From a virus, in the IMG/VR virus record IMGVR_UViG_3300036852_000302, positions 1 to 30,423 of that record: DNA of 30,423 nucleotides; one strand, 5' to 3'. Each line of letters opens with the position of its first letter. The first letter of the stretch is position 1. The notes beneath the pieces were generated by a model. It worked only from the letters and a program-made list of their open reading frames with translations. It was not told the origin of the DNA and did not search any database. This document shows, piece after piece, positions 1-30,423 of the stretch. The position numbers were made by a program, and so were the translations under genes.

Positions 1-127
1 GGGCGCCCCAATAGCTCTAGTACGAATTCGTACGAAAGCTATTCCGATGACGACAAACCAGCCCGCAAAGAACCCGGCAACGTGAACGCCCAGATCGGCC
101 TCGCCGTAGGCGTCGGAGCGGGCACGG
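1..127. repeat. Left copy of 127-bp terminal direct repeat (circular junction)
   Basis: Identical base for base to 30297-30423. An exact overlap of this length at both contig ends is the usual mark of a closed circular assembly, and 127 is a common maximum k-mer, so the overlap is probably assembly redundancy and not a biological terminal repeat. The non-redundant circle is 30,296 bp. It could instead be a real short terminal repeat, but the coding frame of the ParB-like remnant runs straight through it, which favours circularity. Confidence 0.93.
10..43. repeat. 34-bp imperfect palindrome at the junction
   Basis: The centre GTACGAATTCGTAC (20-33) is a perfect palindrome. The outer arms AATAGCT (10-16) and AGCTATT (37-43) are also complementary, leaving two mismatched pairs out of 17. 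It lies inside the ParB-like remnant, so it may be a chance product of Ser/Asn-rich coding sequence, or a protein-binding or recombination site. The same palindrome is repeated at the right end because of the terminal overlap. Confidence 0.6.
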
Positions 128-390: not shown

Positions 391-412
391 GGTCCGGCCA
401 ATTGGCCGGACC
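391..412. repeat. Perfect 22-bp palindrome
   Basis: Each half is GGTCCGGCCAA and the second half is its exact reverse complement, with no spacer. It lies just past the stop of the minus-strand gene ending at 417 and downstream of the ParB-like remnant, that is, between convergent units. There is no T-run on either side, so it is not a classical intrinsic terminator. A regulator or recombinase site, or a cruciform, fits better. Confidence 0.75.
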
Positions 413-5442: not shown

Positions 5443-5946
5443 ATGGGACGACGACGCAAAATGCCGCGCCTCAACTGGCGGGAGCGCCTGCCAGGCTGGG
5501 TGCCTTGGTCGCGTCAGGAAACCGGTTATGGAATTGTCAACAAACCGGTTTCATTCGAAACCGGTTGTGGAATGGTTGAGCCACAACATCCTGTTGTTGC
5601 TGAGCTAAAACCGGTTTCCGACGTTGAAGCACTACGCGCCGAGATGGAGGCCGGCTCCCCTGTCTTCCACGCCCGGTATCTGCTGGCGCATCTTCAGGTT
5701 CAGGGCTACGCAGGGACGAGTCTGACCAGCCTCAGCGTCCGCGACAACGCCTACCCCAAGCTCTGCACCGAGCGCGGCTGGGAGCCGCTCCCCTGGCACG
5801 GCCCCCAGGGCGTCGGAAAGCACCTAGGCCTGCTCTGTGGCGGGAGGCCGATCAGGCCAGGGCCAGATGGCAAGCCGACACGAGGCTATGCGATACCGGC
5901 TGCGGTGGTCGAGCTCGCCGCCGCGAAGCGGGAGCGGACCGGGTGA
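5443..5946 (+). CDS. Unknown protein with embedded AAACCGGTT sites
   Basis: A 167-residue protein. The ATG at 5443 is preceded by AGGTGGAAGG; a GTG at 5434 is possible. The N-terminal 60 residues are low in predicted order and are encoded by the repeated AAACCGGTT motif (TGYG, KPVSFETG, KPVSD). The rest (VEALRAEMEAGSPVFHARYL onward, ending in a Pro/Gly-rich C-terminus with GRPIRPGPDGKPTRGYAIPA) looks like a folded domain of unknown kind. It sits between the candidate attP and the integrase, where excision or regulatory genes are common. The N-terminal part may be non-coding DNA that happens to stay open, with the true start further in (for example near residue 61). Confidence 0.5.
   Translation: MGRRRKMPRLNWRERLPGWVPWSRQETGYGIVNKPVSFETGCGMVEPQHPVVAELKPVSDVEALRAEMEAGSPVFHARYLLAHLQVQGYAGTSLTSLSVRDNAYPKLCTERGWEPLPWHGPQGVGKHLGLLCGGRPIRPGPDGKPTRGYAIPAAVVELAAAKRERTG
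5519..5617. repeat. Four copies of AAACCGGTT palindromic motif
   Basis: Copies at 5519-5527, 5542-5551, 5558-5566 and 5607-5617 share the 8-bp palindrome AACCGGTT. Motif starts are 23, 16 and 50 bases apart. A tight cluster of four in 100 bases of GC-rich DNA, between attP-like DNA and the integrase, suggests binding sites for a recombination accessory protein or regulator. Confidence 0.7.
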
Positions 5947-5973: not shown

Positions 5974-6012
5974 CGCATCCTTTAATAGCGTCCGGGCTTA
6001 TTAAAGGATGCG
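5974..6012. repeat. Perfect 14-bp inverted repeat with 11-base spacer
   Basis: CGCATCCTTTAATA (5974-5987) and TATTAAAGGATGCG (5999-6012) are exact reverse complements around GCGTCCGGGCT. No T-run follows. It lies after the stop at 5946 and before the integrase. It could be a recombinase core-type site, an operator, or a factor-independent stem that ends transcription from 5443-5946. Confidence 0.75.
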
Positions 6013-6083: not shown

Positions 6084-6330
6084 TGTGGGACGCCGCTCCG
6101 CCACTATTTTCGAATAACGTAGTAGATCAAACACTTACTGCAGAAATTACTGCGGGCACTCCCTCCGCCAGCTGCCTTAGTCAGCACCCGCGACATCCCG
6201 CGCCATCAAGCGACAATAACCCAGCAAACACAAGGCTTTCTGGCCCCTGAGCCTCCATGTTGGCGCAAGCTGTCGCGTCCTCTCGCGACTTGTCATGACG
6301 AAAGAAATGTGGGACGGGAGGTGTGGGACG
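6084..6330 (+). repeat. Three direct repeats TGTGGGACG before the integrase
   Basis: Copies at 6084-6092, 6308-6316 and 6322-6330, the last two 14 bases apart. The region 5947-6345 otherwise holds no credible gene. Short direct repeats beside an integrase gene often are arm-type integrase sites; this is inference. A second local repeat, TTACTGC, occurs twice at about 6136-6157. Confidence 0.5.
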
Positions 6331-6345
6331 AAGGGAGGAACGACC

Positions 6346-7560
6346 ATGCCACGGGATTCGAAATCGCGGAACGGGCTGGCGGCCAACGTCGTGGACTTGG
6401 CGCTGAAGGGCAAGCTGGTGCCGGGCAGCTATTCGGACGGCAGAGGCTTGCTGCTCAAGGTCGATAAGGGCTCGGCGCGCTGGGTGCTTCGCATCATGAT
6501 TGGCGGCAAGCGGCGCGACCTGGGGTTAGGCAGCGTCCAGCACGTCGGGCTCGCCGATGCGCGCGAGCGGGCCGCGGCGAAGGTGAAGGAGGTGCGCGCC
6601 GGCAAGGAGCCGACCAGGGTCAAGGCGCTGACGTTCCGGGAAGCGGCGAAAGCCGTCTACGAGCTGCGCAAGGCCGATTGGAAGGAAGGCAGCAAGCACG
6701 TTGACGAGTGGTGGGATCAACTTGAGAACCACATCCTGCCGGCGCTCGGCTCGAAATTGGTCGGCGACATCGAGCCCAGCGATATGTACGAGGCCCTGAA
6801 GCCGCACTGGAACCAGATTGAGGAGACAGCGCGGCGCCTGCGCCAGCGCTGCGAGCTGGTGTTCGACTGGGCCACGGTGAAGGGCTATCGCGCGGCCAAT
6901 CTCGGCAACCCTGCATCGATCTGCGTCGCCGCGCTGCCGAAGCAGACCGACGAGACCGCGCCGCATCCGGCGGTGATGTGGAAGGAGGCGCCGACCTTCG
7001 TCGAGGCGTTGCGCGATTCCAAGGCACGCGAGGGCGCCCGGCTGTGTCTTGAGTTCACGTTGCTGACGGCCTGCCGCACAGCGGAGGCGCTCTATGCGGA
7101 ATGGTCTGAGATGGATCTGGAGGGCAGGACCTGGACAGTTCCTGCTGGCCGGATGAAGCGCGGCAAGGAGCACCGCGTGGCGCTCTCGATGGAGGCGATC
7201 GCCGTGCTGGAGACCGCGAAGGCGAAGTGGCCGAACAGCCGCGTCGTGTTCAACGGCAGGTGGCCCGGCGAGCCGCTGTCCAATCAAGCGATGCTGATGC
7301 TGATGCGCCGCCTCGCCTTCAAGGACCATGACGGCCGGGTGGCGGTGCCGCACGGGTGCCGGGCAACATTCCGGTCCTGGGCCGCGGACCACCAGCTGGA
7401 CGACAAGGCGTGCGAGTTGGCGCTGTCGCATCAGGTCGGTACGAAGGTTTCTCGATCGTACGACCGAAGCGACCTGCTCGACCCGCGCCGGGCGATCATG
7501 CAGGCGTGGGCCGACTTTTGCACCGGCAAGGAGGTCGAGAAGGCGATGGAGGCCGCGTGA
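6346..7560 (+). CDS. int: Tyrosine site-specific integrase, P4/DUF4102 type
   Basis: A 404-residue integrase that would insert the circle into a chromosomal attB and, with an excisionase, release it. The start at 6346 (MPRDSKSRNGLAAN) follows AAGGGAGG; an upstream ATG at 6295 reads through the direct repeats and is less likely. Residues about 5-95 match the N-terminal DUF4102-type arm-binding domain (YSDGRGLLLKV, RWVLRIMIGGKRRDLGLGS). A SAM-like core-binding domain follows (about 95-190). The catalytic residues are visible: Arg244 (LTACRTAEAL), Lys271, His336/Arg339 (PHGCRATFRSW), His362 (ALSHQVG) and Tyr372 (SRSYDRSDLLDPRR). Length is typical. The tRNA-end-like sequence at 5210 is the likely partner site. 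Confidence 0.95.
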   Translation: MPRDSKSRNGLAANVVDLALKGKLVPGSYSDGRGLLLKVDKGSARWVLRIMIGGKRRDLGLGSVQHVGLADARERAAAKVKEVRAGKEPTRVKALTFREAAKAVYELRKADWKEGSKHVDEWWDQLENHILPALGSKLVGDIEPSDMYEALKPHWNQIEETARRLRQRCELVFDWATVKGYRAANLGNPASICVAALPKQTDETAPHPAVMWKEAPTFVEALRDSKAREGARLCLEFTLLTACRTAEALYAEWSEMDLEGRTWTVPAGRMKRGKEHRVALSMEAIAVLETAKAKWPNSRVVFNGRWPGEPLSNQAMLMLMRRLAFKDHDGRVAVPHGCRATFRSWAADHQLDDKACELALSHQVGTKVSRSYDRSDLLDPRRAIMQAWADFCTGKEVEKAMEAA

Positions 7561-14306: not shown

Positions 14307-14433
14307 CACCTACGAATAGGGTCGCAAAAAATCAGCGAAGCGAAAAGATTTTTTGCGGCCCGCCGGGTCAACCCCTCGGTCGCACGGGTCGCAAAAAATA
14401 TACGCACCCCTACGGGGCGTATTTTTTGCGACC
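14255..14433. repeat. GGTCGCAAAAAAT repeat array with two hairpins; candidate origin or bidirectional terminator
   Basis: Direct copies start at 14255, 14320 and 14387 (65 and 67 bases apart). Inverted copies at 14347-14360 (one mismatch) and 14420-14433 (exact) pair with the second and third. The third pair encloses CGC-A-CCCC-TAC-GGGG-CG, making a long hairpin whose inner stem ends in TTTTTT on the plus strand and in T6 on the minus strand, as a two-way intrinsic terminator would. Regular spacing, a copy inside the helicase gene, and position right after primase and helicase also fit replication-origin iterons or single-strand initiation hairpins. Both readings can be true. Confidence 0.75.
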
Positions 14434-16949: not shown

Positions 16950-17206
16950 AGCCCAACCCTTGCCCGCTCTGCGGCGTCGACATGAGTGTGTGGGGCCGCA
17001 TGCACACGTGCCGCCCACCGTCCACGGCAGACACGTCAGCGAGCGCAGAGCATGTGGCTAACGCTGGCAGCGTGATTGAGCATCTGGCTAACAGACCGGG
17101 CCGCAATCGAGCCAGCACCACTTACCGCTACCGCAACCCCACCAAGCGCCGCCTCTACATGCGTAACCTCATGCGCCAGCGCCGTGCAACGGGGAGAGCC
17201 GCATGA
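16946..17206 (+). CDS. Small zinc-finger-like protein
   Basis: An 86-residue protein starting with GTG at 16946 (MKPNPCPLCGVDMSVWGRMH). Cys6 and Cys9 with His20 and Cys22 (CPLCG ... MHTC) form a likely C2HC zinc site. The C-terminus is basic (YRYRNPTKRRLYMRNLMRQR). The stop overlaps the TerS start (ATGA), so it is made just ahead of the terminase and may help packaging. HNH-like residues beyond this are not visible, so I do not call it a nuclease. Confidence 0.6.
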   Translation: MKPNPCPLCGVDMSVWGRMHTCRPPSTADTSASAEHVANAGSVIEHLANRPGRNRASTTYRYRNPTKRRLYMRNLMRQRRATGRAA

Positions 17207-17811
17207 GCCTCGCAGCCTCCTCCGAGGACACGCCCCGAAAGCTCAAGCGCGAGAACTCCAAGGCCAAAAACGGCAAAGGCCCAAAGCCCGTCCTCCCGAC
17301 GCCAAGGCTCCATGCGCCACCCCGCACAGACGACCACCTCGGTAAATATCCACCCGAGGTCATCGATGACATCTTCCGACGCGTTTCTCACGGAGAGACT
17401 TTGACCCAGGCTTGCAACAGCAATCCGAATTATCCTCATCCGTCGAGTGTCATCGATTGGGCCATTAAGGACCCCGTTCTAGCCCAACGGTACGCGCACG
17501 CGCGCGAAGGCCAAACTGCCCGGTGGGCGGACGATATCGTCGACTCGGTCAAGGCCGCGACGCCTGAGACGGCGAACGTGGTTCGGCTGGAGATCGACGC
17601 GAAGAAGTGGCTGCTCGCTCGTCTCCGGCCTGCTCAGTACGGCGACAAGGTTGATCTGACCACCGCCGGCCAGCCGCTGCAGCAGGTCGACGCTGCTGCT
17701 GCAATCAAGGCGCTACTCGATGCGCTGCCGGCGCTGGCACCGACCGCCCTGCCCTCGCCGACTGTGCTCGACGCCGTGGCGGTGCCCGTCGAGACGGAGG
17801 GTGAGCCATGA
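17203..17811 (+). CDS. terS: Phage terminase small subunit
   Basis: A 202-residue protein that should recognise the packaging start and recruit the large subunit. Residues 50-95 form the DNA-binding HTH (YPPEVIDDIFRRVSHGETLT, then SSVIDWAIKDPVLAQRYAHA). The hallmark of this TerS type, AKKWLLARLRPAQYGDKVDL, is at 133-152. The Ala/Pro-rich tail would be the oligomer-to-TerL contact. It is the first of the packaging genes but is separated from TerL by a recombinase gene, which is unusual. The gene is complete. Confidence 0.85.
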   Translation: MSLAASSEDTPRKLKRENSKAKNGKGPKPVLPTPRLHAPPRTDDHLGKYPPEVIDDIFRRVSHGETLTQACNSNPNYPHPSSVIDWAIKDPVLAQRYAHAREGQTARWADDIVDSVKAATPETANVVRLEIDAKKWLLARLRPAQYGDKVDLTTAGQPLQQVDAAAAIKALLDALPALAPTALPSPTVLDAVAVPVETEGEP

Positions 17812-17835: not shown

Positions 17836-17880
17836 AACTCTTTACAAAGCAAGCATTGTGTAAAGAGTTTAACTCTGTTA
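17836..17880. repeat. Overlapping palindromes between TerS and the recombinase gene
   Basis: AACTCTTTACA (17836-17846) and TGTAAAGAGTT (17859-17869) are exact inverted arms around a 12-base spacer. The right arm also starts a second palindrome, GTAAAGAGTTTAACTCT with GTTAC behind it. The stretch is far richer in A/T than the genes around it. It lies 37 bases before the start of the FimB-like recombinase gene, so it may be that enzyme's crossover site, its operator, or a terminator for terS. Confidence 0.7.
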
Positions 17881-17916
17881 CCTCCGATGCCATCGGCATT
17901 TCTGGAGGGTGTTTCG

Positions 17917-18474
17917 ATGAAGGCCAAACGGCAAAAGGTAAAGAGAGACCGCAAGTACCTGTACGAGCACGAGGTGAAGAAGCTCCTCGATGCCGCCAAG
18001 AAGGGGCGTCATGGCACCAGGGACTATTCCCTGCTGCTGCTGATGTACCGGCACGGGCTTCGGGTGTCCGAGGCTACAGGCATGCGGCTGAGCCAGCTCG
18101 ATCTCAACACATCACGCTTGGTGGTGGAGCGGCTGAAGGGCTCGACGGACGGCAACCACCCGGTGGCCGGCGACACGCTCCGGGCACTCAGGAGCTACCT
18201 CAGGGTCCGCGAGCCAGGTCAGCCATGGCTGTTCCTGTCGGAGCGTGGCGGGCAGCTGACGCGCCAGGCAGTCAACTACATCATCGCCCAGGCTGCAGAG
18301 CGGGCTGGGTTGGAGCATGCCCACCCACACGCACTGCGGCACAGCTGCGGCTGGCGGCTGGCGAACAAGGGGACGCCGATCAGGTTCATGCAGGACCTGC
18401 TCGGGCACAAGGACCCCAAACACACCTCGTACTACGCGCAGGTCGCGGGCAAGAACCTCGACGGCCTGACGTAG
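17917..18474 (+). CDS. FimB/XerD-like tyrosine recombinase (catalytic domain only)
   Basis: A 185-residue recombinase. The start at 17917 (MKAKRQKVKRDRKYLYEHEV) follows GGAGGG. It lacks a separate core-binding domain and has FimB/FimE-like length. Catalytic residues are visible: Arg49 (YRHGLRVSEA), Lys74 (ERLKGS), His138/Arg141 (PHALRHSCGW), His164 (LLGHKD) and Tyr172 or 173 (TSYYAQVA). FimB-like enzymes invert or excise short segments at inverted repeats, and one such repeat lies just upstream. Being between TerS and TerL it could control packaging gene expression, resolve multimers, or be an insertion. It is complete and probably active. Confidence 0.9.
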   Translation: MKAKRQKVKRDRKYLYEHEVKKLLDAAKKGRHGTRDYSLLLLMYRHGLRVSEATGMRLSQLDLNTSRLVVERLKGSTDGNHPVAGDTLRALRSYLRVREPGQPWLFLSERGGQLTRQAVNYIIAQAAERAGLEHAHPHALRHSCGWRLANKGTPIRFMQDLLGHKDPKHTSYYAQVAGKNLDGLT

Positions 18475-18502: not shown

Positions 18503-20038
18503 ATGAGCATCCCGCCCGAACTTGTCGCCCTCGCCCAGCGCCTTGCCGGACTCACACCGGAGCAGCGCGACGCTGCCATCGCCAAGATGCCAGCGGCCCA
18601 GCAGCGGACGCTCGTCGCGACGATCACGGGCGTGCCGCTCATCAAGGCGACGATCGGCGCGACCGCCAAACTCACACCGAAGCAGGCCGAAGCCGACGCG
18701 CTGCTCGACGGCCCATGCCGCCACACTCTGCTCGTGGGTGGATCACGCAGCGGGAAGACGTGGACCATCGTCCGCAAGCTCGTCCAGCGTGCGCTGACGG
18801 CGACGTGCCGGCAGGTGGTGCTGCGCTTCCGGTTCAACTCCCTGCACGCGTCCATCATCGGCGACACGCTGCCGGCCGTCATGGCCGCCCACTACCCTGG
18901 TGCAGAGTGGCGGATCGACAAGCAGCTGTGGGTTGCCAGGTTCAGCAACGACAGCGAGCTGTGGTTCTCCGGCCTGGACGAGGCCGACCGGGTCGAGAAG
19001 GTGCTGGGCCAGGGTCACGTCGGGCTCTACTTCAATGAAAGTTCTCAGATCCCGTGGAGCTCGCGGCAGGTAGCCGTCACCCGCCTCGCGCAGAAGATTG
19101 AGGGTGTGCCGCAAAAGGCTTTTTACGACGCCAACCCTCCGAGCCGGCGGTCATGGCTGCACAGCATCTTCGTGGACAAGGTTGATCCTGATCGGCACCA
19201 GCCGCTAGCAAATCCCGACTCGTACGGGTGGCTGCTGCTCAATCCGAACGACAACCGCGAGAACCTCACGGACGAGTACCTCGCGGATCTCGATGCGCTT
19301 GATGAGCGGCGGCGCAATCGGTTCTTCCTGGGGCTGTGGTCGGACGACGCGGAGAACGCGCTCTGGACGGTGGAGCTTCTCGACAAGGGGCGGCTCATCA
19401 CCCAGGCGCCGCCCGACATGCAGCGTATAGTGATTGCGGTGGACCCAACGGGGTGCTCGGGGCCGGAGGATTTGCGCTCGGACGAGGTTGGCATCGTCGT
19501 TGTTGGCCTAGGTACCGATGGTCGCGGCTACGTGCTCGAAGACCTGTCCGGCCGGTTCGGGCCTGATCAGTGGAAGACGATCGTGGCGAGCGCCTATGAC
19601 CGGTGGGGCGCTGATGCCGTGGTGGTCGAGACGAATTTCGGCGGCGCAATGGTGACAGAAGTCTTGAGAACGGCCGTGGCGCAAGGTGGCTATCCGCTCA
19701 ACATCAAGGAGGTGTCGGCATCGCGTGGCAAGCACGTTCGCGCCGAGCCGATTGCGGCGCTGTGGTCGCAGGACCGTGTGTCGCTTGCTGGCCGGTTCAC
19801 GGAGCTTGAGAACCAGATGCTGTCGATGACGACGGCTGGCTATCGCGGTGACCGGTCGCCCGATCGTCTCGACGCGATGGTCTGGGGCATGACGGCACTC
19901 TTCCCGGCGATGGCTCGGGATGCTCGCGACGCGGCGTCTGGTGGTGCCGAGTCGCGTCGACGGACCCGCATCCCCAAGGTGATCTACTCGCGTGGCTTCG
20001 AGGTCAGCCGAATGTATTCGGCGCGGGGGAGGCGCTGA
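18503..20038 (+). CDS. terL: Phage terminase large subunit
   Basis: A 511-residue packaging motor and nuclease. The first 60 residues are an extra Ala-rich segment. Walker A GGSRSGKT is at 79-86, the Walker B-like strand GLYFNE at 174-179, and the coupling motif AFYDANPP at about 206-213. The RNase H-like nuclease shows IAVDPTG (Asp314), VVVETNFGG (Glu376) and SPDRLDAMVWG (Asp454/Asp457), so both active centres look intact. TerS lies upstream but a recombinase gene intervenes. No portal gene follows, which is very unusual for a complete phage. Confidence 0.95.
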   Translation: MSIPPELVALAQRLAGLTPEQRDAAIAKMPAAQQRTLVATITGVPLIKATIGATAKLTPKQAEADALLDGPCRHTLLVGGSRSGKTWTIVRKLVQRALTATCRQVVLRFRFNSLHASIIGDTLPAVMAAHYPGAEWRIDKQLWVARFSNDSELWFSGLDEADRVEKVLGQGHVGLYFNESSQIPWSSRQVAVTRLAQKIEGVPQKAFYDANPPSRRSWLHSIFVDKVDPDRHQPLANPDSYGWLLLNPNDNRENLTDEYLADLDALDERRRNRFFLGLWSDDAENALWTVELLDKGRLITQAPPDMQRIVIAVDPTGCSGPEDLRSDEVGIVVVGLGTDGRGYVLEDLSGRFGPDQWKTIVASAYDRWGADAVVVETNFGGAMVTEVLRTAVAQGGYPLNIKEVSASRGKHVRAEPIAALWSQDRVSLAGRFTELENQMLSMTTAGYRGDRSPDRLDAMVWGMTALFPAMARDARDAASGGAESRRRTRIPKVIYSRGFEVSRMYSARGRR

Positions 20039-22642: not shown

Positions 22643-24688
22643 ATGGCAGACGACTACAACGAGCCGACACCCGGCTTTGCCGAGGAAATCCAGCGTGCAC
22701 TAGGAGGATCGGAGGCACCGCCTGAGCAGCCGGCCGCGCCGCGGGCAGATCCCGCGTTGCAGGAGTGGGAGGCGCTGCGCCGTCGGCGGAAGGGCGCCAA
22801 CGCGGCGCCTCCGGAGCCGGTCGAGACCCAACCGGACCCCAACGTCGGCCTGAGCCCGCTTGCCCAGGAACTGGAGCGGGAGGGCTGGTTCGGTCAGCTC
22901 GCTGCACAGAATGCGGCGGAGCGCGAGTCCGAGCGGCGGGCGGCCATCCGACAGTCTGCCGAGGCGGCAGCCCAGGAGGCGGCACGATACGGCGGCGGCG
23001 ATGCGCCGGAGCTGTACCCAGGCGAGGCTGAGGCGACGCGGAATGCTGGCGCCGTCTTTGCCGAGGCGCCACGATGGGTGGCGCAGCATCTCTTTCAGCT
23101 GCCAGGTAGCATCGTCGCGGGCGGTGGCAGCGTGCTGCAGGCACCTGATGTGACCATTGCGGCGGGTCAGTACGGTGGGCAGGCGACGCGCCAAAGGCAG
23201 TTGGCGCTCGCCGACGCCATCGACCGGGGCGAGTCCTACAGCCTGAGACAGCCCGGCTCCTATTCCGTCGACACCCCGCTCGTGATGTTCGCCAACCAGT
23301 ATCGGTCGGCGGGCCCTGAAGACCGGGCGCGCATGCGGGCAAGTTTGCAGTCCGAGATCGCGGCGTTCAACCCTACGCCGATCCAGCAACGTCCCCTCTA
23401 CCGAGCCGGCGAGGCGATGCAGGAGACCGGGCGCAATCTGGTTCCTCATTTGGAGGGCTACAATGAGCAGAGCGTCGCCACGCAGCTGTCTCGCGGTCTC
23501 GGCTCGATGATCGTCGGCATGCCGGTGGCCATGATTTCTGGTCCGGCTGGTGTGGTCGGCGGTGCCGCAGTGTTCGGCGCCATGGGTATTGGCGAGGCCA
23601 CGCAAAGTGCCGTCGAGTTCGACCGGCGCGAGCGTGCGGCAGGACGCGAAGGGATCTCGCAGGAGCAAATCGTTCTCGCCGGCATCCTTGGCGTTGCGCC
23701 TGGCACGACTGACATTCTCCCTGTCGAGGTGATGCTCAACCGCCTTCGCATCCCCGGGGTTCCGCCGGCTGCAAACCGCATCCTCGCACGAGCGGTCGCA
23801 AGCGTAGGCGGGCGCACCGTGATCCAGGCCCTGACTGAGGGCGGGCAGGAGGCATTCCAGCAGATCCTGCAGAACTTGATCACACAGCAGGTCTACAACC
23901 CGAACCAAGAACTTACTGAAAACACATGGTGGAATGCTGTGATCGGCGCAGGCGTCGGCGCCGAGTCCGAGCTCGGCCGGACCGCTCTTGCCAGCCTCGC
24001 CCGGTTGGGACGTGGTCGCGGCGGACGGGCGGCTACACAGCCCCCAACCGCTGCGCCCACGTCGGTGGAGGGCGGCTGGCAGCAGGCGGAGACGGAGACG
24101 CGGGCGGCCACTGCTCCTCCAACACTTCCAGAGGGAGCGTATGCCGATGACGTTGCCTGGGCCAACTCGCCAGAGGGCCGCGAATACCGCCGGCAGATAA
24201 GGGCCAGCTATGAGCGCCGATACCGCAGCGAGCCCCTGGACGTCTTAGGCAACAGAGACCGCATGGGTTGGGTGTTGGATCGATTCGGCGATCTCCGGGA
24301 CGCGGTCGGGCTGGGTGTTCCTGAGCCGCCGAATGACCCAGAGCTGCAGGCGCGGATGACCAGGGCAGACGCGGCGACCAGGGCCGCGCTCGTTAGCGAG
24401 GCGTACGTGATCGACGCCAATGGTCAGCGGCAAGGGGAGCCCGTGATCGTCCTGGACCCCAACTACTTCTCCCGCGACGGCCAGCGCTTCGCGAGAGTGC
24501 AGCAGCCGGATGGCACGACATCATCGCTGCCGGCGGAACAGCTGCAACCCACCGGCCGCGAGAGCGCGGCTGTGCGAGAAGCACGCGCTCGCGTCGGGTC
24601 GCCGCCACAGCCTGCTGCGCCGGCCGTGCAGCCTGACTGGGACGCGTTCGGGGCGAGCGCCATCTTCCGCCTAGGAGACCACGAATGA
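22643..24688 (+). CDS. Large candidate internal virion / ejection-type protein
   Basis: A 681-residue protein. The first 135 residues are disordered and Gln/Glu/Arg-rich. Hydrophobic Gly/Ala stretches at 285-318 (LGSMIVGMPVAMISGPAGVV), 343-357 and 431-440 could insert in membranes. The segment TEGGQEAFQQILQNLITQQV YNPNQELTENT (398-428) resembles a repeated pattern in large internal proteins of podovirus-like phages, which leave the head with the DNA. No transglycosylase, protease or polymerase motif is visible. The C-terminal 230 residues are polar. In a particle from a helper it could be a cargo protein that helps DNA entry. The family call is moderate. Confidence 0.65.
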   Translation: MADDYNEPTPGFAEEIQRALGGSEAPPEQPAAPRADPALQEWEALRRRRKGANAAPPEPVETQPDPNVGLSPLAQELEREGWFGQLAAQNAAERESERRAAIRQSAEAAAQEAARYGGGDAPELYPGEAEATRNAGAVFAEAPRWVAQHLFQLPGSIVAGGGSVLQAPDVTIAAGQYGGQATRQRQLALADAIDRGESYSLRQPGSYSVDTPLVMFANQYRSAGPEDRARMRASLQSEIAAFNPTPIQQRPLYRAGEAMQETGRNLVPHLEGYNEQSVATQLSRGLGSMIVGMPVAMISGPAGVVGGAAVFGAMGIGEATQSAVEFDRRERAAGREGISQEQIVLAGILGVAPGTTDILPVEVMLNRLRIPGVPPAANRILARAVASVGGRTVIQALTEGGQEAFQQILQNLITQQVYNPNQELTENTWWNAVIGAGVGAESELGRTALASLARLGRGRGGRAATQPPTAAPTSVEGGWQQAETETRAATAPPTLPEGAYADDVAWANSPEGREYRRQIRASYERRYRSEPLDVLGNRDRMGWVLDRFGDLRDAVGLGVPEPPNDPELQARMTRADAATRAALVSEAYVIDANGQRQGEPVIVLDPNYFSRDGQRFARVQQPDGTTSSLPAEQLQPTGRESAAVREARARVGSPPQPAAPAVQPDWDAFGASAIFRLGDHE

Positions 24689-30212: not shown

Positions 30213-30423
30213 GAGGAGCTGCGGCCAGGATTGGAGGCGGAGGCGAAGGAGAGGCAACGGATCGGGCAGAAGGAGGGAGGCAAGATCGGTGGCCGTGGGC
30301 GCCCCAATAGCTCTAGTACGAATTCGTACGAAAGCTATTCCGATGACGACAAACCAGCCCGCAAAGAACCCGGCAACGTGAACGCCCAGATCGGCCTCGC
30401 CGTAGGCGTCGGAGCGGGCACGG
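30213..30423 (+). pseudogene. ParB-like remnant, upstream part across the junction
   Basis: Frame 0 encodes EELRPGLEAEAKERQRIGQK EGGKIGGRGRP and continues through the circular junction into 1-156. L-x-P-x-LE-x-EAKERQR is the usual linker after the ParB nuclease-like domain in phage/plasmid partition-like proteins. No start codon of quality exists in this frame (stop at 30069-30071); the neighbouring ATG at 30199 is in another frame, so one indel near 30210 would join ATG to this frame. Decay or a sequencing error are both possible. Confidence 0.5.
30297..30423. repeat. Right copy of 127-bp terminal direct repeat
   Basis: Same sequence as 1-127; see that entry. When the circle is closed, position 30423 continues into position 128. 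Confidence 0.93.

What the first reader, a model, noticed from the sequence alone, without database searches (positions are those of the whole stretch)
17836..18474. FimB-like recombinase inserted between TerS and TerL, with palindromes in front
TerS and TerL are normally adjacent. Here a catalytic-domain-only recombinase separates them, and an exact 11-bp inverted repeat plus an overlapping palindrome lies directly before it in AT-rich DNA. The enzyme could flip or excise DNA to switch packaging on or off, or resolve multimers.
Basis: partly seen in the sequence, partly recalled or inferred. Interest (0 to 1): 0.75.

Follow-up and report, generated by a model that had tools for sequence, protein, structure and literature searches.

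The report
Phage recombinase with own three-part site
Between its two DNA-packaging genes this phage carries a small recombination enzyme right next to that enzyme's own DNA target site, a pair also found on many small plasmids, which most likely cuts joined or end-duplicated copies of the phage genome back into single circles.

Summary
A catalytic-domain-only tyrosine recombinase (17917-18474) lies between TerS (17203-17811, Sf6 type) and TerL (18503-20038), with an exact inverted repeat before it. Related phage contigs (L007, L002) have the same order and repeat.

Across 34 relatives (phages, plasmids, chromosomes) the repeat is a recombination-site-like element: two ~14-bp inverted arms around a 6-bp asymmetric centre ending in CA, with arms that change with the recombinase lineage. 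A third copy of the right arm, in direct orientation, lies 65-68 bp further on in 30 of 34 loci and 77 bp (one helical turn more) in two; in the window, 17937-17946. The layout resembles TnpI/irs of Tn4430.

The window holds one site and has a separate arm-type integrase; close relatives sit in rep-parA-toxin/antitoxin blocks of small plasmids. Inversion or excision within the phage circle is therefore very unlikely, and integration unlikely. Best reading: a resolvase acting on two direct copies of its single site (multimers, or redundant ends of headful-packaged DNA), as P1 Cre-lox does. That it acts, and why it sits beside terS, are inferred, not shown.

The parts
17203..17811 (+). TerS, small terminase subunit, Sf6 type
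   Evidence: PF20901 E 4.5e-25 and phrog_1482 E 3.5e-25
17836..17849 (+). Left arm of the recombination-site core, AACTCTTTACAAAG
   Evidence: Aligned in register with relatives
17850..17855 (+). 6-bp asymmetric centre, CAAGCA
   Evidence: Among 29 aligned sites, centre position 5 is C in 24 and position 6 is A in 23; the mirror position 1 is T in only 6
17856..17869 (+). Right arm of the core, TTGTGTAAAGAGTT (12 of 14 positions complementary to the left arm)
17937..17946 (+). Third half-site GGTAAAGAGA, direct repeat of the right arm, 67 bp after it, inside the recombinase reading frame
   Evidence: Same offset (65-68) in 30 of 34 loci, 77 in two; covaries with the arms. 8 of 10 match here, one of the weaker copies
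17917..18474 (+). FimB-like, catalytic-domain-only tyrosine recombinase, 185 aa
   Evidence: PF00589; R49 K74 H138 R141 H164 Y173 invariant in 40 sequences; model pLDDT 91 with Xer-like catalytic fold
18503..20038 (+). TerL, large terminase subunit
   Evidence: PF17289, PF04466, phrog_979
6295..7560 (+). Separate full-length integrase with arm-binding, central and catalytic domains (context: integration has its own enzyme)
   Evidence: PF13356, PF22022, PF00589

Best explanation
The recombinase and the site directly before it form a self-contained site-specific resolution module. Subunits bind the two inverted arms of the core (17836-17869) and exchange strands across the 6-bp asymmetric centre with a second, directly repeated copy of the same site; further recombinase bound at the third half-site (17937-17946) helps to order the synapse, favours deletion between direct repeats and probably also represses the gene. 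Because the phage genome has one site, the partner copy exists only when the genome is duplicated: in multimers made by recombination or replication, or in linear headful DNA whose redundant ends both carry the site. The product is a monomer circle. Its position beside terS, where pac lies in several headful phages, would put the site at the start of the packaged DNA and so inside the terminal redundancy, as proposed for P1 lox. Shown here: gene, intact catalytic residues, conserved three-part site, its single copy in the window, gene order in relatives, plasmid context. Inferred: binding, recombination, its direction, headful packaging and the pac position. My weights: resolution between direct repeats about 0.7; circularisation of redundant ends as the reason for the position about 0.4.
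For: Catalytic residues invariant in 40 relatives. Core of two inverted arms and asymmetric 6-bp centre, in register across phages, plasmids and chromosomes, with arms that follow the recombinase lineage: TGTAAAGAGT, ACGGGAAAGT, TACGAACAGT, ATGGGGATGT. Third half-site at a rigid offset, direct orientation, mean match 8.4 of 10 against 6.4 for arms of other lineages, 6.6 for reversed and 5.9 for inverted arms; two loci are longer by 10 bp. One orphan copy keeps core and third half-site 67 bp apart with no recombinase found nearby (L194), so the third site is not only coding constraint. One site in the window. Relatives on small plasmids beside rep, parA and toxin-antitoxin genes. TerS-site-REC-TerL in W and L007, TerS-site-REC-small ORF-TerL in L002, TerS-site-REC in L017, site-REC-TerS-TerL in L001 (TerL of L001), although TerL of W and of L007/L002 are only 22-23% identical over part of their length. 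Separate arm-type integrase in the window. A 127-bp terminal repeat marks the record as an assembled circle.
Against: No recombination product, binding assay or read data were available. Headful packaging and the pac position are not shown for this phage. In more distant viral relatives on contigs over 30 kb with a detected TerL, the recombinase is often not near TerL, so the position is a feature of the near clade. The third half-site of the window is imperfect (8 of 10). A fixed third site overlapping the start of the gene could serve autoregulation alone. Some relatives are chromosomal with no sign of a plasmid or phage around them (L118, read by eye).
Confidence: 0.68

Rival explanations
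1. The recombinase inverts or excises a segment of the phage genome to switch packaging on or off.
For: The protein is most like FimB-type invertases among named families (NF007370 141 bits).
Against: Only one site in the window; fimbrial FimB loci lack this core; FimB model scores are far below the curated cut-off of 221; two TerL types are found behind the same block.
Confidence: 0.05
2. The site is an attachment site and the recombinase integrates the phage into a host site or dif-like locus.
For: Simple tyrosine recombinases do integrate some phages (Brujita type, PMC8138268); the true host of the window is unknown, so a host partner site cannot be searched for.
Against: A full arm-type integrase is present; in L103 an arm-type integrase next to tRNA-Leu heads the integrated element while the site and recombinase lie about 5 kb further in, intact; the Paracoccus genome (3.7 Mb) holds no second copy, so no attL/attR pair.
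Confidence: 0.1
3. The three half-sites are mainly an operator: the protein represses its own gene and the recombination is minor or lost.
For: The third half-site overlaps the start of the gene and the core lies where a promoter could be; TnpI binding to irs also regulates expression (PMC7157771).
Against: All six catalytic residues are invariant in 40 relatives; the centre is asymmetric, which an operator does not need. No sigma-70-like promoter was found there, which is weak evidence either way.
Confidence: 0.12
4. A moron: the plasmid module landed in a tolerated gap between terminase genes, still resolves multimers or does nothing useful, and its position has no meaning for packaging. (This competes with the circularisation part of the best explanation, not with the resolvase part.)
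For: Close relatives are plasmid modules; distant viral relatives carry it away from TerL.
Against: The terS-adjacent position is kept across different TerL types.
Confidence: 0.35

Closest known systems
TnpI/irs resolution system of Tn4430 and Tn5401
   Same: Tyrosine recombinase with its site directly upstream; core inverted repeats IR1-IR2 plus direct-repeat accessory sites (PMC7157771).
   Different: Here one accessory direct repeat at 67 bp rather than two, inside the start of the coding region; no Tn3 transposase next to it; the protein has only the catalytic domain.
Cre/loxP of phage P1
   Same: Phage-encoded recombinase acting at one adjacent site to keep the genome monomeric (PMC2409434); proximity of lox to pac is from my own knowledge.
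   Different: lox has an 8-bp spacer and no third site; Cre has an N-terminal domain; P1 is a plasmid prophage while this phage carries an integrase.
Xer/dif and Xer/cer
   Same: 6-bp centre between two arms; the nearest solved structures are XerA, XerD and XerH.
   Different: Own cognate recombinase and arms, no core-binding domain, accessory half-site for the recombinase itself rather than for PepA/ArgR.
FimB/FimE-type DNA invertases
   Same: Same short catalytic-only protein type; joined in one tree.
   Different: No paired inverted sites, no fimbrial genes, different site; scores under the family cut-offs.
Putative multimer resolution (MRS) genes annotated on environmental plasmids (PMC4447125)
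   Same: A module so named next to rep and par on plasmids.
   Different: The passages I read name the module in maps only; no site or three-part architecture was mentioned there. I did not compare its protein with this one.

Membership tests
Tyrosine recombinase superfamily | Catalytic R-K-H-R-H/W-Y in the conserved fold | tested here: met
   R49 K74 H138 R141 H164 Y173 invariant in 40 sequences; model with Xer-like fold
FimB/FimE invertases | Reaches the curated FimB/FimE model score | tested here: not met
   141 and 131 bits against cut-offs 221 and 222
FimB/FimE invertases | Two inverted sites flanking a promoter segment | tested here: not met
   One site only in the window
Cre/lox | 13-8-13 site | tested here: not met
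   Aligned sites support a 6-bp centre; the window alone could be read as 13-8-13 with one mismatch
Cre/lox | N-terminal DNA-binding domain | tested here: not met
   185-aa protein; Pfam catalytic domain covers residues 13-177
TnpI/irs-like resolution site | Inverted core plus direct-repeat accessory half-sites upstream of the recombinase gene | tested here: met
   one accessory repeat rather than two, and it lies in the start of the gene, so it works like irs but is not filed as a TnpI system
TnpI/irs-like resolution site | Deletion-selective recombination | not testable with these tools
   Needs a two-site plasmid assay
Plasmid/phage multimer resolution system | Single site per replicon next to its recombinase | tested here: met
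   Window and plasmids with a clear site; Paracoccus genome
Phage integrase with attP | Site at the ends of the integrated element | tested here: inconclusive
   In one integrated relative (L103) the site is internal beside an arm-type integrase at tRNA-Leu; the window's own prophage was not found
Headful (pac) packaging | Circularly permuted, terminally redundant DNA | not tested
   The 127-bp end repeat shows only that the assembly closes as a circle

The most novel reading that the evidence does not exclude
A widespread, undescribed class of resolution system, made of a catalytic-domain-only FimB-like recombinase and a three-part site (core plus a helically phased third half-site 67 bp away), has been built into the terminase block of phages next to terS, where it couples packaging start to RecA-independent circularisation; the fimbrial on/off invertases would be a side branch of this resolvase family.
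Probability: 0.4. Interest if true: 0.68.

Novelty: new variant of a known kind. Interest (0 to 1): 0.52.

Why it matters
It gives a sequence definition (core, polarity, third half-site at fixed spacing) for a large set of recombinases that databases label only as 'integrase' or 'DNA invertase', so their sites can be found and tested. If they are resolvases, many small plasmids and phages gain an explained maintenance function. In the phages the position next to terS would make a P1-like link between headful packaging and circularisation testable. A 185-aa recombinase with a compact, lineage-specific site is also a simple model of how catalytic-only enzymes choose direct repeats.

Tried and rejected
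Reading the repeat as a terminator: no terminator-like site found. Reading it as half of an invertible pair: no second copy. The overlapping palindrome: not kept in relatives. A Bradyrhizobium site pattern gave no hit in four genomes, not even at the known loci, because I set its spacing two bases short; it says nothing about copy number there. Exact site patterns in viral contigs: one hit for the TTTACA type, the L007 contig itself, and 17 for the CCS/SGG type, of which only one had even a weak recombinase match nearby, so the second pattern is mostly chance. TerL and TerS of the window as baits found TerL relatives without the recombinase (L177 and L179 keep TerS next to TerL) but no further phages with the block. 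No paper naming this system was found.

Full report
Observation. The window is a virus record of 30,423 bases with a 127-bp terminal repeat, so the assembly closes as a circle of 30,296 bases. The recombinase 17917-18474 lies between TerS 17203-17811 and TerL 18503-20038. Inverted repeats of this length occur elsewhere in the window, so the repeat had to be judged by conservation.

The enzyme. It is 185 aa, essentially only the catalytic domain (PF00589 residues 13-177). The six catalytic residues R49, K74, H138, R141, H164 and Y173 are invariant in 40 sequences, the relatives being 36-67% identical to it. The predicted model has mean pLDDT 91 and matches XerA, XerD and XerH and the catalytic domains of HP1 and P2 integrases. 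Its best named models are the FimB/FimE-type invertases, well below their cut-offs.

The site. In 64 non-fimbrial loci of the family, 22 have at least 11 of 14 complementary positions around a 6-bp centre just before the gene, against 1.2 expected from shuffles; 11 fimbrial loci show 1 against 0.4. Aligned sites share register: outer ACT...AGT, inner A/T tract, a variable centre ending in CA (C in 24 and A in 23 of 29 sites) without the mirror TG, so the site has polarity. The arm sequence differs between lineages of the tree. For the window the site reads AACTCTTTACAAAG-caagca-TTGTGTAAAGAGTT.

The third half-site. In 34 loci chosen for a clear core (mostly by the count of complementary positions, a few by eye; spacing was not used for the choice), the best match to the right arm lies 65-68 bp after it in 30, at 77 in two (L090, L094), elsewhere in two. 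It is in direct orientation and follows the lineage-specific arm (mean 8.4 of 10; other-lineage arms 6.4, reversed 6.6, inverted 5.9). A Pseudovibrio contig (L194) keeps core and third site 67 bp apart with no recombinase found. Since the sequence falls in the N-terminal codons, some protein-level constraint may add to this, but the covariation between lineages and the orphan copy argue for a DNA element.

Context in phages. Closest relatives: L007 TerS-site-REC-TerL; L002 TerS-site-REC-small ORF-TerL; L017 TerS-site-REC at the contig end; L001 site-REC-TerS-TerL (TerS of W, L001, L007 and L017 are PF20901; TerL of L001 by phrog_38). L004, L029 and L038 have a TerL 1-3 kb downstream. TerL of W matches TerL of L007 only at 22% over 271 positions although the recombinases are 68% identical; TerL of L007 and L002 are 80% identical. 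TerL relatives without the recombinase keep TerS next to TerL (L177, L179). In viral contigs over 30 kb with a detected TerL, two of six have it close to the recombinase (my reading), so the position is not general.

Context on plasmids and in the tree. Next in the tree come plasmid and genome loci, mainly of Alphaproteobacteria; fimbrial FimB-type genes form a separate, nearly exclusive group (the root is not known). On plasmids the gene sits near rep, parA and toxin-antitoxin genes, e.g. Pukyongiella p5, Methylospira, Cupriavidus, Sphingobium; the core is recognisable in at least four of the eight plasmids read (L166, L167, L170, L172) and weak or not found in the others.

Copy number. The window has no second site. 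With a 24-base pattern and three mismatches, four genomes (G035, G038, G041, G042) have one site, at the recombinase; G036 has two, in two similar contigs that both carry the recombinase; G039 has two, the second beside a frameshifted recombinase; G043 has four, three of them without an intact recombinase; G037 and G040 have none, their sites differing too much. No genome showed a pair flanking a segment.

Mechanism. A single polar site beside its recombinase, an accessory half-site at fixed spacing, and a plasmid-maintenance context fit a resolvase acting between direct repeats that exist only in multimers or in redundant ends. TnpI/irs is the nearest described layout (PMC7157771) and P1 Cre/lox the nearest described use in a phage (PMC2409434). 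The placement beside terS would suit circularisation of headful DNA, since pac lies in or near terS in several such phages (own knowledge). Steps shown: sequence anatomy, conservation, copy number, gene order. Steps inferred: binding, recombination, direction, packaging mode, pac position.

Alternatives. An inversion switch is very unlikely because a second site is missing. Integration is unlikely because the window has an arm-type integrase, and L103 shows an element with an arm-type integrase beside tRNA-Leu whose site and recombinase are internal. Pure autoregulation is possible but does not explain invariant catalytic residues. That the position near terS is accidental remains a real possibility.

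Noticed in passing
window 1-127 and 30297-30423: Exact 127-bp terminal repeat, the length left by a k=127 assembly graph; the record is a circle of 30,296 bases.
   Followed up: partly
window 5518-5566: Two neighbouring inverted repeats sharing AAACCGGTTT, which look like paired operators, about 730 bp before the integrase gene.
   Followed up: no
window 14323-14433 and 5974-6012: Long exact inverted repeats (up to 14 bp per arm), AT-rich in part, possibly terminators.
   Followed up: no
window 391-412: Perfect 22-bp palindrome GGTCCGGCCAATTGGCCGGACC.
   Followed up: no
window 17886-17909: GCCATCGGCATTT before the ribosome-binding site is partly kept in L007, L001 and L002, between core and third half-site.
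   Followed up: no
window 22643-24688: 681-aa protein with weak similarity to a virion RNA polymerase family (phrog_2206, E 5e-6), possibly low-complexity.
   Followed up: no
L193, L194 (Pseudovibrio contigs): Copies of the site without a recombinase, sharing about 100 bp on the far side and then diverging; possibly sites used in trans.
   Followed up: partly
L099, L100, L107, L114, L170: A sister lineage has a differently spaced core (odd spacing, GGACAAAA...TTTTGTCC) and, in L170, a third half-site in the opposite orientation near the start codon.
   Followed up: partly
L015 907-2979: A gene for a phage-type RNA polymerase lies between the recombinase and TerL (phrog_414, E 1.8e-105).
   Followed up: no
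tree: Fimbrial FimB-type invertases fall inside the spread of plasmid and phage recombinases, suggesting the switch enzymes may derive from resolvase-like ancestors (root unknown).
   Followed up: partly
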